A DNA stretch of 35,551 nt from a virus, in IMG/VR virus record IMGVR_UViG_3300013286_000031, positions 1 through 35,551 of that record. One strand, written 5' to 3'. This document shows positions 20,192-30,957 of the stretch, in pieces (the stretch's first letter is position 1; the number at the start of each line of letters is the position of its first letter). The notes below the pieces were generated by a model. That model saw nothing but the letters and a program-made list of their open reading frames with translations. It did no database searches and was not told where the DNA came from. A program made the position numbers and the translations under genes.

Positions 20192-20992
20192 TTACTCAGT
20201 AGCAATTAGCTGACCTTCAAAAGCATACGATCCAACGTGTGCTAGTTTTACCCAAGGCGCTGCAAACACTTTACCGCCAATCAAACGCCATTCACGGCAA
20301 AAGTGATAGTCCTCAGACAGCAAACGATTTGTTTCAGGCTCAATTGAAGTAGCAAAATACTCTGCAACATCTTCCCCTTGTTTCATTGTCTTATTAAGAT
20401 CAACAACGTCATTAGAATAAGACGGTACATGAGGTCTTAATTTATCAAACACTTCACGCTTAATCATCATAAATCCAGTGCCACCATTAAAAATCTCTAC
20501 TGGTTCATTGATAGGTACAGTAACTTCACCAGCGTAATTTACTAGGTTTACTACAAAGCTGCCTGTATGAAATTTAAGCTGATCTTCTGGTACGCCTTGA
20601 TCCATTGCTCGTCTTACACTGTTCCAATTGATTTCTTTCTTAGGATAGATACCACAAATAACATCTTTGTCAGCCTGAAGCATGGTAATAATATCTCTTG
20701 GGTTAAACAAAATGTCAGCATCAATGAACATTAAATGAGTGCAATTGGTTTTTGCAAATGTTTGAGCTAATGAGTTTCTGGCACGGGTAATTAAGCTCTC
20801 ATTAAACATAAAGCTAAAAGACAGTTGAACTCCATTGTCCGCACATATTTTAGTCAGTTGGAGAATCGACTGAGTGTAAAATCCAGCGCACATACCCCCA
20901 TACATAGGAGTAGCTATAAATACATTAGGTGGTACACGTTCTTTTTTTTCTTCAAACTGCTTTACATCTAGCTTTTTCTTTTTGGTAGCCAT
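20192..20992 (-). CDS. GT-A-type glycosyltransferase
   Basis: A 266-aa protein with a Rossmann-like start (PNVFIATPMYGGMCAGFY) and the segment ITRARNSLAQTF followed by THLMFIDADILFNP. DAD is the DXD metal/nucleotide-sugar motif of GT-A enzymes. GGTGFMMIKREVFDKL and SEDYHFCREW are typical acceptor-site elements of this fold. AAGGAGAAGCA precedes the ATG. It is the last gene of the - strand cassette with radical SAM and ThDP enzymes, so it may transfer a sugar made or altered by those enzymes. Donor and acceptor are unknown. Confidence 0.75.
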   Translation of the reverse strand: MATKKKKLDVKQFEEKKERVPPNVFIATPMYGGMCAGFYTQSILQLTKICADNGVQLSFSFMFNESLITRARNSLAQTFAKTNCTHLMFIDADILFNPRDIITMLQADKDVICGIYPKKEINWNSVRRAMDQGVPEDQLKFHTGSFVVNLVNYAGEVTVPINEPVEIFNGGTGFMMIKREVFDKLRPHVPSYSNDVVDLNKTMKQGEDVAEYFATSIEPETNRLLSEDYHFCREWRLIGGKVFAAPWVKLAHVGSYAFEGQLIATE

Positions 20993-21001
20993 TGCTTCTC
21001 C

Positions 21002-22096
21002 TTAAATAAAGTTGTCGGTACTAGCGTTTACATAATCGTTAATCAATATGTTCTTGTTATCGTTAGAACATTCGTGCATACAAGTAGTTTTAGCATTGAA
21101 TTTCTCAAAGTATTCCTTGGTTTCCTGGCTAAACCATAGGTCTTTAAACCGTTTTCCATCAATAGAACCTATGCAGCCAGTGCTATCGTAGGCTTTGTTG
21201 TGACACGCATACACGTTAAGATCCGCACCGATGACTGGCACGGTTTGCATGATGTAACATCTTTTATAGCTTCGTACACTAGAATGACTGCTGCCAGGAG
21301 TAATGTTATAAGTGCTATTGACACTAAAATTTTCAGAAGTAATAGTTTGGATTTTTGCAAGTTGCTCATTGACTTCATCTGCTATTTCCTTGTGGTAATC
21401 GTAAAAATCAGGCACGTACATTGGGCTAAAACGCACATTCTCAACACCACAATCTTTTAATAACTGACTGTAACCCCATAAATTTTTGTAATTGTTGCGA
21501 TGCACAATATAATTAACCCCTAAATCACAAGTTGCGTCTTTAATGGCAGCAAAGTTCTTGATATTCTTAATTACAGAATCAAAGCTCTTTTCAGGAATGT
21601 TCCTAAAACGCTTCATTTCTGCGCCATCGGTGTAGTCCATGCTGACCCTTACCCACTTGGCTTTTGAAAGCACCTCGGCACGTTCTTTGGCTAAATTTTG
21701 ACCGTTTGTAATAATTGATAGATCAAGCCCTAATTCCAATGTTTCACGCATGATCGGCACAATGTCTGGGTGCATCAATGGCTCTCCACCACCTGAATAA
21801 GTGATTGCTTTTGTACCCATGCGGTGCAAGTCATACAAAATTTCTAACATTTTTTCAGTAGGGATGACATCATCTTCTTTCATATCTTCGTGCATACCAC
21901 TGATAATGTGCTGCTCATCCCCACCATCTTTTACCCTAAAACCAGTGCTATAAACGCAAAAGAAGCACCCGTGATTGCAAATGTTAATTGGCTTGATGCG
22001 AACATATAGCGGTGCTTTAACCTCCCCCGCTCCAAAAGATTTCAGCTTTTCTGGAAAATGAAATATTTTAAAATTGCTATATTTGTTACTTTTCAC
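21002..22096 (-). CDS. Radical SAM protein with SPASM-like C-terminus
   Basis: A 364-aa enzyme. The cluster motif is C40-N-H-G-C44-F-F-C47 (CxxxCxxC), which binds the [4Fe-4S] cluster that cleaves S-adenosylmethionine. SGGGEPLMHPDI carries the GGE motif contacting SAM. The C-terminal 90 or so residues contain several Cys (YKRCYIMQ, YACHNK, GCIGS, TTCMHEC) in a SPASM-like arrangement that would hold extra clusters. SPASM enzymes act on peptides, sugars and other substrates. The start is GTG with GTGA overlap to the upstream E1 beta gene, so the two are co-translated. The substrate is unknown. Confidence 0.85.
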   Translation of the reverse strand: MKSNKYSNFKIFHFPEKLKSFGAGEVKAPLYVRIKPINICNHGCFFCVYSTGFRVKDGGDEQHIISGMHEDMKEDDVIPTEKMLEILYDLHRMGTKAITYSGGGEPLMHPDIVPIMRETLELGLDLSIITNGQNLAKERAEVLSKAKWVRVSMDYTDGAEMKRFRNIPEKSFDSVIKNIKNFAAIKDATCDLGVNYIVHRNNYKNLWGYSQLLKDCGVENVRFSPMYVPDFYDYHKEIADEVNEQLAKIQTITSENFSVNSTYNITPGSSHSSVRSYKRCYIMQTVPVIGADLNVYACHNKAYDSTGCIGSIDGKRFKDLWFSQETKEYFEKFNAKTTCMHECSNDNKNILINDYVNASTDNFI

Positions 22097-22608
22097 ATTA
22101 AATCCTTGTATTCAACAATGATGCAAGATTGGTTTCTTGTTACTGCCAGCTCATACGCTGTTTTAGCAAAATCTTCATTTAAAGCTGTGTAAACAGGTAT
22201 ATTAGTCATTGCACGTAATGCAGTAGAAAAATCTTGAACGTGTGTAGCGCCTGTATATAAAGGTTTTGTAATGTTTCCTACAATACAACGAATGATGACT
22301 TTAGGATCATATTCGCCCTTGCTAATATCATTGATTTTGTCTAAATGGTTAACCAACGCATCCATTGCGTTCATCAAAAAGTCCATTCTTTCAATAAAAA
22401 CAACGGGTTTTAGCCCTGTCAACGACATTCCAATAGCAACACCCATCATAAGATTTTCTGCAACAGGCATTTCTAGTATTTGCTCACCTGGCACGTTTTT
22501 TAAAGTGCCTAATGCTCTACCTTTTTGCAAACCATAGCCGATAAACCGTGTTTTGGGATCTTTACTAAGCTCAGTATTTGAGCTAGTGATCTGCTCTTTA
22601 TATGTCAT
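22093..22608 (-). CDS. ThDP-dependent enzyme, E1 beta-like Pyr subunit (no C-terminal domain)
   Basis: A 171-aa protein like the pyrimidine-binding half of 2-oxoacid dehydrogenase E1 beta or transketolase. MPVAENLMMGVAIGMSLTGL (from residue 47) includes Glu51, which matches the catalytic Glu that activates thiamine diphosphate. PVVFIERMDFLMNAMDALVN matches the conserved E1 beta helix region. E1 beta proteins usually exceed 300 residues; this one ends after the Pyr domain and lacks the transketolase C-terminal domain. It overlaps E1 alpha (ATGA) and radical SAM (GTGA), so subunits are probably made in equal amounts. Confidence 0.82.
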   Translation of the reverse strand: MTYKEQITSSNTELSKDPKTRFIGYGLQKGRALGTLKNVPGEQILEMPVAENLMMGVAIGMSLTGLKPVVFIERMDFLMNAMDALVNHLDKINDISKGEYDPKVIIRCIVGNITKPLYTGATHVQDFSTALRAMTNIPVYTALNEDFAKTAYELAVTRNQSCIIVEYKDLM

Positions 22609-23222
22609 TTTTTGTCTTTGAAAATAATGTGTTTTTTTGTGCCATTGCCAGCATGAGGATAAGTGGCGGTGTATTCATTACGTATTACGCAAGATGGCAT
22701 TTCAAACTTAAATTTGTTGGGATTACGCTCTACTAGCGTTGTGTCCACTGATCTGTTGTTATCTTCAATCACAAACATACAAGGCAAATCCTGACCTTCT
22801 ACAAACATTACAGCCTCGTAAAAGTGACCTTGTTCCTCAGCTCCATCACCTAAAAAACAATATACCCAATTATCGCTACCAGACTTTTTTAATGCGTACG
22901 CTACACCTGCTGCAATAGCGCAAGTGCCAGCCAAAATAGATGAAGTAAAAAAATGACAATCCCTGTCAAAAACAAACATAGAATTGCCACACAAAATGCG
23001 TTCCATAAGCTCAGATTGGGGTATTCCAGCCAATAAAGCGTGATGGTGATTGCGATGAGTGCTGAAAATCCAATCTCCATCCTTCATATCCTTAAATAGA
23101 TCAATTAAAAAATCCTCATTGCCACCCGACAGGTGAATCAAATATGGCAGATCGCCTTCTTCCCAATGATGAGCAACCTTCTTTTCAAACGCAATAAGCT
23201 GCTCTTTAGTGCAATATTCCAT
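22605..23222 (-). CDS. ThDP-dependent enzyme, E1 alpha-like PP subunit
   Basis: A 205-aa protein carrying the diphosphate-binding half. The thiamine diphosphate motif is complete: Gly125-Asp-Gly127, then 27 residues, then Asn155-Asn156. STHRNHHHALLAG matches the E1 alpha element R-x-H before the motif. The open frame extends 25 codons upstream, but ATG at 23222 is chosen because it overlaps the previous stop (TGATG) and the homologous part starts there. E1 alpha proteins usually have well over 300 residues, so this is a reduced form. No E2 or E3 gene is present. Confidence 0.85.
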   Translation of the reverse strand: MEYCTKEQLIAFEKKVAHHWEEGDLPYLIHLSGGNEDFLIDLFKDMKDGDWIFSTHRNHHHALLAGIPQSELMERILCGNSMFVFDRDCHFFTSSILAGTCAIAAGVAYALKKSGSDNWVYCFLGDGAEEQGHFYEAVMFVEGQDLPCMFVIEDNNRSVDTTLVERNPNKFKFEMPSCVIRNEYTATYPHAGNGTKKHIIFKDKK

Positions 23223-23413
23223 CAATAACGCCCAATGGTTAGCCAAAAGCAATAAGCAAATACACCAACAAACGCTAAAGCCCCTACAAAACCCCAAAAC
23301 CAGCTATATTCGCTTTGTTGTGGTCCTTCTATGGCAGTTGCATAGTCAGCATCTCTGAACGCCTCAGAAGCGCTTCTATACGTTTTACCTTCTCCGTAAT
23401 TCCATTGGCTCAT
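23222..23413 (-). CDS. Small C-terminal-anchor membrane protein (63 aa)
   Basis: A 63-aa protein with an acidic soluble N-terminus (GKTYRSASEAFRDADYATAI) and a C-terminal membrane segment (WFWGFVGALAFVGVFAYCFW). AAGGGGATAAC precedes the ATG. It is translationally coupled to the E1 alpha gene, and a hairpin separates it from the resolvase gene, so it heads the cassette. It might tether the cassette enzymes to the inner membrane; this is inference. Confidence 0.65.
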   Translation of the reverse strand: MSQWNYGEGKTYRSASEAFRDADYATAIEGPQQSEYSWFWGFVGALAFVGVFAYCFWLTIGRY

Positions 23414-28835: not shown

Positions 28836-29552
28836 TTACAACTTATTGATTGTCTGAGTATTGTCAGTTAAATTGACTGTTTGATGACCGCAGTAGAACT
28901 TACGGCTTAAGATATTGTTTTGATTGAAGATATTGAACGTAGTCCACATCGGACCAGTAGCTACGCCTTCAATGTGCTGGCAATACTTTGATATAGCACC
29001 TATGCCAGTCACGTCTAAACCCCAATCTAAGGTGCAAGAAACCATCCCTGTAGGGGCAGTGGTGACTACTTTTAGCCCCTGATTTGACAATTCCCGTACC
29101 CGTTTCTCAAAGAATTGGGGGTTAAAGTCTGGTAATTGCCCTGATGACGGAGAGGAGTTAATGACCAAAACATCAAAATTCATGTCATACGGTTCATTTA
29201 AGGCGGGGTAATCGAACAGTAAGTCCTCTCTGCAAGCCATAGGAGAGGAAATCTCCAAAATGTTAGATAGGTGATCGAACCATTCTAAGTAGAACGCAAC
29301 CCAATCATGCTGTAGTGGATGGCTATAAAAGTAATTATCTCTACCAATCCAAGCGTTATGAGCGCCAGGCGGGATATTTAACCCTTGCAAGCTGATAGCA
29401 GTATCCTCTACGAGCGGGGTGAGTTGGTCAATGTGAGCAGGATTAACGTGGTGCGTGAACTCTAAGCTCGGGTTTTCCTTGCAAGCCCTACGCAAATAGT
29501 TAAGATGAACTAGGTTATCCCCTAGACGATATTCATTGTATGTGTGTATCAT
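28836..29552 (-). CDS. Glycosyltransferase-like protein (GT-B / heptosyltransferase-like)
   Basis: A 238-aa protein. The N-terminus YNEYRLGDNLVHLNYLRRAC resembles the start of GT9-type heptosyltransferases (R-x-GD-x-x). Near the C-terminus SKYCQHIEGVATGPMWTTFN resembles their donor-binding loop (G-V-x-TGPMH-like). It is shorter than typical GT9 enzymes, so it may be a divergent or reduced member. There is no good ribosome site before ATG 29552. It stands alone on the - strand, divergent from the packaging genes. Remote family call only. Confidence 0.55.
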   Translation of the reverse strand: MIHTYNEYRLGDNLVHLNYLRRACKENPSLEFTHHVNPAHIDQLTPLVEDTAISLQGLNIPPGAHNAWIGRDNYFYSHPLQHDWVAFYLEWFDHLSNILEISSPMACREDLLFDYPALNEPYDMNFDVLVINSSPSSGQLPDFNPQFFEKRVRELSNQGLKVVTTAPTGMVSCTLDWGLDVTGIGAISKYCQHIEGVATGPMWTTFNIFNQNNILSRKFYCGHQTVNLTDNTQTINKL

Positions 29553-30024: not shown

Positions 30025-30250
30025 GCGCTTAAGCAAAGAAAGACTCTTGTATAAGACTGAAATGTTAAGGGCGTTATCTTGCAGAACCAAGAAGCAAAAG
30101 ATAGCCCTTGCAAGCGAGTGGCGAGAGAAATACAGCCCAATGACCTATGACGGTCTTATAAGCCTGGCTAAGAATCATACAGCCCGTTTAAAGGTGGCTT
30201 ATTGGAATTTACCTAACTTTGAAACAAAGCGCATGGAGAAGCACAATTGA
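30005..30250 (+). CDS. Small basic helical protein (about 81 aa)
   Basis: A basic helical protein (ERLSKERLLYKTEMLRALSC, then RTKKQKIALASEWREKYSPM) with TYDGLISLAKNHTARLKVAY. The frame is open from ATG 29993; ATG 30005 or 30011 is more likely, with GAGG nearby. Its stop overlaps the TTG start of the glycosyltransferase gene. It could bind DNA; no family recognised. Confidence 0.55.
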   Translation: MGMQDIERLSKERLLYKTEMLRALSCRTKKQKIALASEWREKYSPMTYDGLISLAKNHTARLKVAYWNLPNFETKRMEKHN

Positions 30251-30957
30251 AAACCGCAGCCGTAGTGACCGTAACTAGGGGTGACCGCCCTTGGGAGTTA
30301 TCCAATTGCATAGCTTCAGTCAAAGCTCAAACTTATCCTGCAAACCATTACATTTTGTGTGACGGTGATTTTGATAACTTTGTAAAGATTAAAAAAAAAT
30401 ATCCTGAGGCAAAAGTCTGTTATTGGGATGGCAAGATTGGCGGGGATGGTTATGCGGGGCAACGCTGGTTAGCGGCTGCTCCCCAACTGGTTACTGAAGA
30501 TGTCACCTTCTTTTGTAATGATGACGATTGGTATGATTCTGACCATGTAGCTTCCATCATGGGCAAGATTGAACAAGGATATGATTGGGCGTATAGCCTT
30601 AGGTCAATTTATGACAAGGAGGGCAACTTTTTGTTTGATGACAATTGCGAAGCCCTAGGAGAGCTACACGATTCATGGAATATTCCTGGTCATCACTTTG
30701 TTGACTGGTGTATGTGGGGAATGAAAACCGTATTCTTAAAACAACTAGCAATTATCCTTAATCAACCTAGCCCGCAGGTGGATAGGCAGTTTTATGAGGC
30801 TGCAACGCAGATAGTTCCTAATTTCACCTCTACCAACAAGCATACGTTTAATTTCAGGCTTGGCGGGGAATGTGGCGTACAAAAAGAGTTCTTTGAAATG
30901 GGCAACCACTCCCTACTACAACGGTTTAACGGTAAGTTGCCTTGGATCATTACATGA
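30247..30957 (+). CDS. Family-2-like glycosyltransferase
   Basis: A 236-aa protein with the GT-A start AAVVTVTRGDRPWELSNCIA, then SVKAQTYPANHYILCDG, and FFCNDDDWYDSDHV carrying the acidic DDD motif for metal and nucleotide-sugar binding. The start is TTG, overlapping the previous stop (ATTGA). It lies directly upstream of TerL and overlaps it, an odd location for a sugar enzyme, which suggests late expression and a role in modifying virion, DNA or cell surface. Donor and acceptor unknown. Confidence 0.75.
   Translation: MKTAAVVTVTRGDRPWELSNCIASVKAQTYPANHYILCDGDFDNFVKIKKKYPEAKVCYWDGKIGGDGYAGQRWLAAAPQLVTEDVTFFCNDDDWYDSDHVASIMGKIEQGYDWAYSLRSIYDKEGNFLFDDNCEALGELHDSWNIPGHHFVDWCMWGMKTVFLKQLAIILNQPSPQVDRQFYEAATQIVPNFTSTNKHTFNFRLGGECGVQKEFFEMGNHSLLQRFNGKLPWIIT

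What the first reader, a model, noticed from the sequence alone, without database searches (positions are those of the whole stretch)
20192..23222. Reduced ThDP E1 alpha/beta pair, radical SAM/SPASM enzyme and glycosyltransferase in one coupled phage operon
Seen: two ThDP half-enzymes of 205 and 171 residues, with a complete GDG-x27-NN motif and the catalytic Glu51; a CxxxCxxC radical SAM protein; and a DAD-motif glycosyltransferase. The ThDP pair and the radical SAM gene are linked by start/stop overlaps (TGATG, ATGA, GTGA). Established: E1 alpha/beta enzymes decarboxylate 2-oxoacids or transfer two-carbon units using ThDP, and radical SAM/SPASM enzymes do difficult C-H chemistry. The E1 beta-type protein lacks its C-terminal domain and there is no E2 or E3, so this is not a normal dehydrogenase complex. 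Inference: a phage pathway that builds or alters a sugar or small molecule by carbon-carbon chemistry and then transfers it. I know of no described phage system of this composition.
Basis: partly seen in the sequence, partly recalled or inferred. Interest (0 to 1): 0.88.

Follow-up and report, generated by a model that had tools for sequence, protein, structure and literature searches.

The report
Phage sugar-building cassette with interchangeable parts
A freshwater phage carries a small enzyme cassette that probably oxidises a sugar, adds carbons to it and passes it to a glycosyltransferase, and across about 130 distinct phage and microbial loci the cassette keeps one oxidising enzyme and one carbon-transfer enzyme although each has been swapped repeatedly for an unrelated or distantly related substitute.

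Summary
In detail: E1-alpha-like (205 aa), E1-beta-like (171 aa), radical SAM and glycosyltransferase genes lie as described, with the stated overlaps. The ThDP residues are conserved (catalytic Glu51 in 117/117 distinct homologues). There is no E2 and no transketolase C-terminal domain in the whole record.

What is really there is a two-slot module. Every distinct locus that could be judged carries one dehydrogenase-type gene, a twitch radical SAM (47) or an unrelated Zn alcohol dehydrogenase (83), never both. It also carries one ThDP pair, the mini-E1 (118) or a split mini-transketolase (11), never both; one rSAM locus is cut by a contig end. On the Zn-ADH tree the ThDP partner changes at least 5-7 times, and one swap is allelic between closely related phages.

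Most likely the radical SAM oxidises a sugar alcohol, the mini-E1 transfers a two-carbon unit like a transketolase rather than acting as a 2-oxoacid dehydrogenase, and the GT9 protein transfers the product. The chemistry is inferred and the product unknown. Limited literature searches found no such phage system.

The parts
22605..23222 (-). Mini-E1 alpha-type (PP-domain) ThDP subunit, 205 aa
   Evidence: E1_dh 8.9e-20; profile matches PDH E1-alpha structures 1.3e-17; phrog_34187 7.6e-71; GD motif invariant in 107 distinct homologues
22093..22608 (-). Mini-E1 beta-type (Pyr-domain) ThDP subunit, 171 aa, without the C-terminal domain
   Evidence: Transket_pyr 1.2e-10 over 11-170; Glu51 invariant 117/117; no Transketolase_C in the record
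21002..22096 (-). Twitch-type radical SAM enzyme, 364 aa
   Evidence: Radical_SAM 1.3e-20; CxxxCxxC C40/C44/C47 and four further invariant Cys C280/C298/C339/C343; AF2 model pLDDT 85.6, nearest folds DesII, SkfB, BlsE
28836..29552 (-).
   Evidence: AF2 pLDDT 93.9; WaaC Z 13.5 (rmsd 3.7, 220 aligned), WaaF and TibC close behind; adjacency in distant phages
20192..20992 (-). GT-A-type (DAD motif) glycosyltransferase, 266 aa; a loose member, present without the cassette in related phages
   Evidence: phrog_1574 4.3e-50; Anp1/GT2 weak; related phages keep it without E1/rSAM

Best explanation
A phage-encoded sugar-tailoring cassette with two catalytic slots plus a glycosyltransferase. Step 1 (inferred): the twitch radical SAM enzyme removes two electrons from a hydroxyl of a sugar, sugar phosphate or nucleotide sugar, making a carbonyl; in sister cassettes a Zn alcohol dehydrogenase does this. 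Step 2 (inferred): the two-chain mini-E1, a ThDP enzyme reduced to its PP and Pyr domains, transfers a two-carbon ketol unit from a host ketose to or from that carbonyl, as a transketolase would; in sister cassettes a split mini-transketolase does this. Step 3 (inferred): the GT9-like protein at 28836-29552 transfers the product, perhaps after activation by host ADP-heptose-type enzymes; the GT-A protein adds a further residue. Shown by data: the proteins, their conserved catalytic residues, the recurrent module, strict one-of-each occupancy of two slots, repeated swaps, the folds. Not shown: any reaction, substrate or acceptor (host surface glycan or virion).
For: Occupancy: 110 distinct E1 loci have rSAM 49, ADH 55, both 0, neither 6. 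Anchored on the dehydrogenase, the rSAM class (47) has E1 44, TK 2, none 1 (contig end), and the ADH class (83) has E1 74, TK 9, none 0; never both ThDP pairs. Whole-record checks agree. Swaps: 3 dehydrogenase changes on the E1 tree, 2 forced by starred branches, including an rSAM locus nested in the ADH clade; 7 ThDP changes on the ADH tree, 5 forced, as scattered as random labels (shuffled mean 7.6); 2 on the rSAM tree. Allelic swap L354/L362 with the same GTx and rSAM (88% nt) and 91%/80% flanks; the replacement pair is Transketolase_N + Transket_pyr. The rSAM has the four auxiliary Cys of a single-cluster twitch domain, as in the dehydrogenase BtrN (PMC9012708, PMC6231123), and its nearest fold is DesII, a TDP-sugar enzyme that dehydrogenates TDP-quinovose (PMC11434129). 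Precedent for C2 transfer by a two-subunit transketolase onto a ketone: Rif15 (PMC6002545). GT9 fold. ADH-class loci carry an HldE-like kinase in 78/83.
Against: No activity, substrate or product is known. Swaps could diversify the product rather than preserve the reaction. By sequence the window pair is E1-like, not transketolase-like. Twitch rSAMs also include epimerases, and related SPASM/twitch folds a nucleoside decarboxylase; BtrN itself ranks lower than DesII, SkfB and BlsE by fold (Z 16.6 v 22.9-24.6). The rSAM class lacks kinase and epimerase genes (1/47 and 2/47), so host supply is assumed; the host is unknown. GT9-like genes also occur without E1/rSAM in related phages.
Confidence: 0.5

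Rival explanations
1. Oxoacid route: the mini-E1 decarboxylates a 2-oxoacid (e.g. pyruvate) and adds the resulting acyl carbanion to the keto-sugar made by rSAM/ADH, giving a two-carbon branched sugar as YerE does for yersiniose (YerE from my own knowledge). This is the nearest form of the first reader's reading.
For: Sequence is E1-type, with E1_dh 8.9e-20 and TIGR03182 4.5e-28; PDH E1 can perform carboligations (title and abstract of PMC7696235).
Against: Repeatedly replaced by transketolase-type pairs in the same slot; no E2 and no Transketolase_C.
Confidence: 0.2
2. Epimerase route: the rSAM is a twitch epimerase, equivalent to the ADH+SDR pair seen in part of the ADH class, and the ThDP enzyme simply builds the ketose precursor (a sedoheptulose-like sugar) for an ADP-heptose-type donor.
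For: SDR near 26/83 ADH loci but 2/47 rSAM loci; HldE-like kinase 78/83, epimerase-like 57/83 in the ADH class; twitch epimerases such as HygY exist (title cited in PMC10991966); C190 is nearly invariant.
Against: C190 precedes the predicted strand 191-198, away from the end where SAM normally binds (my reading; no distance measured); most ADH loci have no SDR detected nearby.
Confidence: 0.15
3. Diversification: the slots are exchanged because they give different sugars (receptor or virion masking), so swapped enzymes need not do the same reaction.
For: O-antigen-like modularity; many different GTs and methyltransferases around the module.
Against: Strict one-of-each occupancy and absence of any locus with two ThDP pairs or two dehydrogenases; conserved partners GTx and rSAM across one allelic swap.
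Confidence: 0.13

Closest known systems
2-oxoacid dehydrogenase E1 alpha/beta (PDH, BCKDH)
   Same: Homologous PP and Pyr domains, GDG..N motif, catalytic Glu of the beta chain
   Different: Alpha chain about 150 residues shorter, beta chain lacks its C-terminal domain, no E2 in the record, different partners
Two-subunit transketolases such as Rif15a/b (PMC6002545)
   Same: Overlapping genes for two ThDP half-enzymes in a specialised pathway; transketolase pairs replace the phage pair in 11 distinct loci
   Different: Window pair is E1-type by sequence; no C2 transfer shown
Twitch/SPASM radical SAM enzymes BtrN, DesII, BlsE
   Same: CxxxCxxC plus four auxiliary Cys (as in BtrN); DesII and BlsE, among the nearest folds, act on nucleotide or nucleoside sugars
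   Different: About 15-22% identity; reaction unknown; no ThDP partner known to me for those enzymes
GT9 heptosyltransferases WaaC, WaaF, TibC
   Same: Fold over the whole chain, Z 11.9-13.5
   Different: About 10-14% identity, 238 aa against roughly 320-390, no Pfam GT9 hit; donor unknown
Cyanophage LPS/sugar clusters (S-SM2, P-TIM68)
   Same: Fused E1a-E1b of the same family beside a Zn-ADH and sugar genes
   Different: Zn-ADH instead of radical SAM; much larger cluster with kinase and epimerase

Membership tests
2-oxoacid dehydrogenase E1 | Homology to E1 PP and Pyr domains | tested here: met
2-oxoacid dehydrogenase E1 | ThDP motif and catalytic Glu conserved in homologues | tested here: met
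   GD 107/107, Glu 117/117 (GDG 88/107)
2-oxoacid dehydrogenase E1 | Beta chain with Transketolase_C domain | tested here: not met
   (controls ring in 14 of 14)
2-oxoacid dehydrogenase E1 | E2 acyltransferase partner | tested here: not met
   no PF00198 in the record, controls ring in 10 of 14; a host E2 cannot be excluded
Transketolase | Transketolase_N sequence family | tested here: not met
   E1_dh and weak DXP_synthase_N only; transketolase NCBIfam models far under cut-off
Transketolase | Occupies the same genomic slot as true transketolase pairs, never together with one | tested here: met
Transketolase | C2 ketol transfer activity | not testable with these tools
   needs an assay
Twitch radical SAM | CxxxCxxC and a truncated C-terminal domain with ligands for one auxiliary cluster | tested here: met
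   seven invariant Cys in all, four of them auxiliary; clusters themselves not observed
Full SPASM (seven auxiliary Cys) | CX9-15GX4C-gap-CX2CX5CX3C-gap-C | tested here: not met
   only four auxiliary Cys invariant; motif from PMC6231123
Radical SAM alcohol dehydrogenase (BtrN-like) | Two-electron oxidation of an alcohol | not testable with these tools
   inferred from slot sharing with Zn-ADH
GT9 heptosyltransferase | GT9 fold | tested here: met
   GT9 members rank above the other GT-B glycosyltransferases (Z 11.9-13.5; next GtfD 9.5); one row, 9grx (chain of a photosynthetic supercomplex), scores 12.1
GT9 heptosyltransferase | PF01075 sequence match | tested here: not met
   no Pfam family; hhalign to cellular GT9 relatives inconclusive
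GT9 heptosyltransferase | ADP-heptose as donor | not testable with these tools
   needs an assay

The most novel reading that the evidence does not exclude
Phages and a few microbes share an undescribed way of building a higher-carbon or branched sugar: oxidise a sugar alcohol (radical SAM or Zn-ADH), add a ketol unit with a minimal ThDP enzyme (mini-E1 or mini-transketolase), then transfer it with a GT9-type enzyme, with both catalytic steps repeatedly replaced by enzymes from other families.
Probability: 0.35. Interest if true: 0.85.

Novelty: new variant of a known kind. Interest (0 to 1): 0.72.

Why it matters
Phage sugar clusters are known, but here comparative genomics alone points to the reaction types: two slots, each filled by exactly one of two enzyme types, swapped many times. 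That gives a functional hypothesis for an unannotated PHROG (34187) and for a family of radical SAM enzymes, names the assay to run, and offers a natural case in which a radical enzyme and a zinc dehydrogenase appear to do the same job. If right, it predicts an unknown sugar on phage-infected cells or virions.

Tried and rejected
Normal dehydrogenase complex: rejected, no E2 or C-terminal domain. GTd as the core partner: rejected, since related phages keep it without E1/rSAM. GTx238 by sequence: Pfam, PDB profile search, hhalign and the phage collection gave nothing useful; only the AF2 model placed it. GTx238 as strictly tied to E1: not so, 12 of 20 GTx records had no E1, several of them 30-36 kb, and five have GTd nearby. 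Cell origin of the family: rare in the phyla sampled, phylum of the Desulfobacterales MAG 1/345, of the Parcubacteria MAG 1/333, of the Nanoarchaeota MAG 7/327, a distant subfamily in that of the Omnitrophota MAG 16/237, so no clear donor. My HMMs labelled 'GmhA' and 'NTP' were built from mixed annotations; Pfam shows a HAD-like hydrolase and a cupin, so those two counts are not used. Literature: nothing describing this set in the openly licensed papers searched. Host: not found; no tRNA in the window. The structure of the E1 pair was not predicted (two jobs only, spent on GTx238 and the rSAM).

Full report
1. The window is a 35,551-base IMG/VR virus record. E1a (22605-23222), E1b (22093-22608), rSAM (21002-22096) and a GT-A-type glycosyltransferase (20192-20992) lie on the minus strand with the stated overlaps. 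Pfam gives E1_dh, Transket_pyr, Radical_SAM and a weak SPASM. PHROG 34187, 'unknown function', models the two ThDP halves as one 405-residue protein. E1b has no C-terminal transketolase domain, and the record encodes no E2, with positive controls ringing.

2. The family is real and distinct. A profile of 14 E1a members scores those members at about 295-359 bits and the ordinary E1 of the Prochlorococcus genome at 88. In 107 E1a and 117 E1b distinct sequences the Gly-Asp of the ThDP motif and Glu51 are invariant. Relatives occur in at least 339 IMG/VR stretches, in a 735-kb uncultured phage, in cyanophages S-SM2 and P-TIM68, and sparsely in cells: 7/327 genomes of the phylum of a Nanoarchaeota MAG, 1/345 for a Desulfobacterales MAG, 1/333 for a Parcubacteria MAG, and a distant subfamily in 16/237 for an Omnitrophota MAG.

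3. Gene neighbourhoods. In freshwater relatives of the window phage the order E1a-E1b-rSAM-GT is kept, often with a cargo gene inserted between E1a and E1b. In other phages the order is GTx-E1b-rSAM-E1a among structural genes, or the set lies between terminase and portal. GTx is the relative of window gene 28836-29552; its AF2 model (pLDDT 93.9) is a GT9 heptosyltransferase fold: WaaC Z 13.5, WaaF 12.9, TibC 11.9, next GT-B glycosyltransferase family 9.5. Related phages MW202753 and MW202825, and contigs L328, L334 and L342, have the GT-A gene near RusA but no E1 or rSAM, so E1a-E1b-rSAM is an insertable cassette.

4. Two slots. Searching with E1, with rSAM and with Zn-ADH separately and collapsing at 97% gave: 110 E1 loci with rSAM 49, ADH 55, both 0, neither 6; 47 rSAM loci with mini-E1 44, mini-transketolase 2, none 1 (at a contig end); 83 ADH loci with mini-E1 74, mini-transketolase 9, none 0; never two ThDP pairs. 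The replacement pair is Transketolase_N plus Transket_pyr. Whole-record searches of eight records for the rSAM and eleven for the ADH agree: no record had both the rSAM and the cassette-type ADH, although one cell genome, G003, has ordinary ADH relatives elsewhere at far lower scores.

5. Swaps are repeated. On the E1a tree the dehydrogenase label changes 3 times (2 forced by starred branches), with L219, an rSAM locus, inside the ADH clade. On the ADH tree the ThDP label changes 7 times (5 forced) against 7.6 for shuffled labels, so partner choice is nearly free. These are quick trees with some long branches. In L354 and L362, flanks of 91% and 80% nucleotide identity surround the same GTx and rSAM (88%) but different ThDP genes.

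6. Mechanism. Shown: slot occupancy, swaps, conserved catalytic residues, folds. Inferred: slot 1 oxidises an alcohol, because a Zn-ADH fills it and the rSAM is of the single-auxiliary-cluster twitch type, with four auxiliary Cys as in BtrN (PMC9012708, PMC6231123), and its nearest fold is DesII, which dehydrogenates TDP-quinovose (PMC11434129). Slot 2 transfers a C2 ketol unit, because true transketolase pairs fill it; Rif15 shows that a two-subunit transketolase can add such a unit to a ketone (PMC6002545). The GT9-like protein then transfers the product. In the ADH class an HldE-like kinase is near 78/83 loci, with an epimerase, a cytidylyltransferase-like protein, a HAD-like protein and a cupin in the example read, suggesting that the sugar is activated like heptose; the rSAM class lacks these, so I assume the host supplies them. 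Acceptor and benefit (receptor masking, virion or other glycosylation) are open.

7. Novelty. The parts are known families; the combination, the ThDP reduction to two domains and the two-slot exchange were not found in the papers searched (only openly licensed papers are held). I file it as a new variant of phage sugar-tailoring clusters; it would be categorically new only if the product or reaction proves new.

Noticed in passing
L002, L045, L088, L036 and others, between E1a and E1b: A hypervariable insertion point: many sister phages carry a cargo ORF there (a small family MNNEPVAW...LYTHPAKTLTDEEI...AILRKAQEK, DNA methyltransferase-like ORFs, others); the window has none.
   Followed up: partly
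window 23222-23413: A 63-aa, probably single-membrane-span ORF directly upstream of E1a (1-base overlap), detected only in the closest relatives.
   Followed up: no
window 30247-30957: A third glycosyltransferase (GT2, 1.9e-8) next to the terminase gene.
   Followed up: no
L098 19980-20291 (S-SM2 'phosphoheptose isomerase'): The public annotation looks doubtful: a relative of this 103-aa protein matches a HAD-type hydrolase in Pfam, weakly.
   Followed up: partly
L169-L183 (Omnitrophota and one archaeal MAG): A distant subfamily of the E1 pair sits with HddA-like heptose kinase, nucleotidyltransferase, epimerases and what looks like a B12-type radical SAM protein: possibly a related cellular pathway.
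   Followed up: partly
L103, L106, L164-L167: DPANN and Desulfobacterales clusters combine the E1 pair with two or more radical SAM proteins and GT9-like genes, some with an old-yellow-enzyme-like flavoprotein and SDR (family names partly by eye).
   Followed up: partly
L349-L351, L354, L364: In TK-type rSAM cassettes an extra methyltransferase-like gene lies beside the pair; L056, which is E1/ADH-type, has a similar-looking gene.
   Followed up: no
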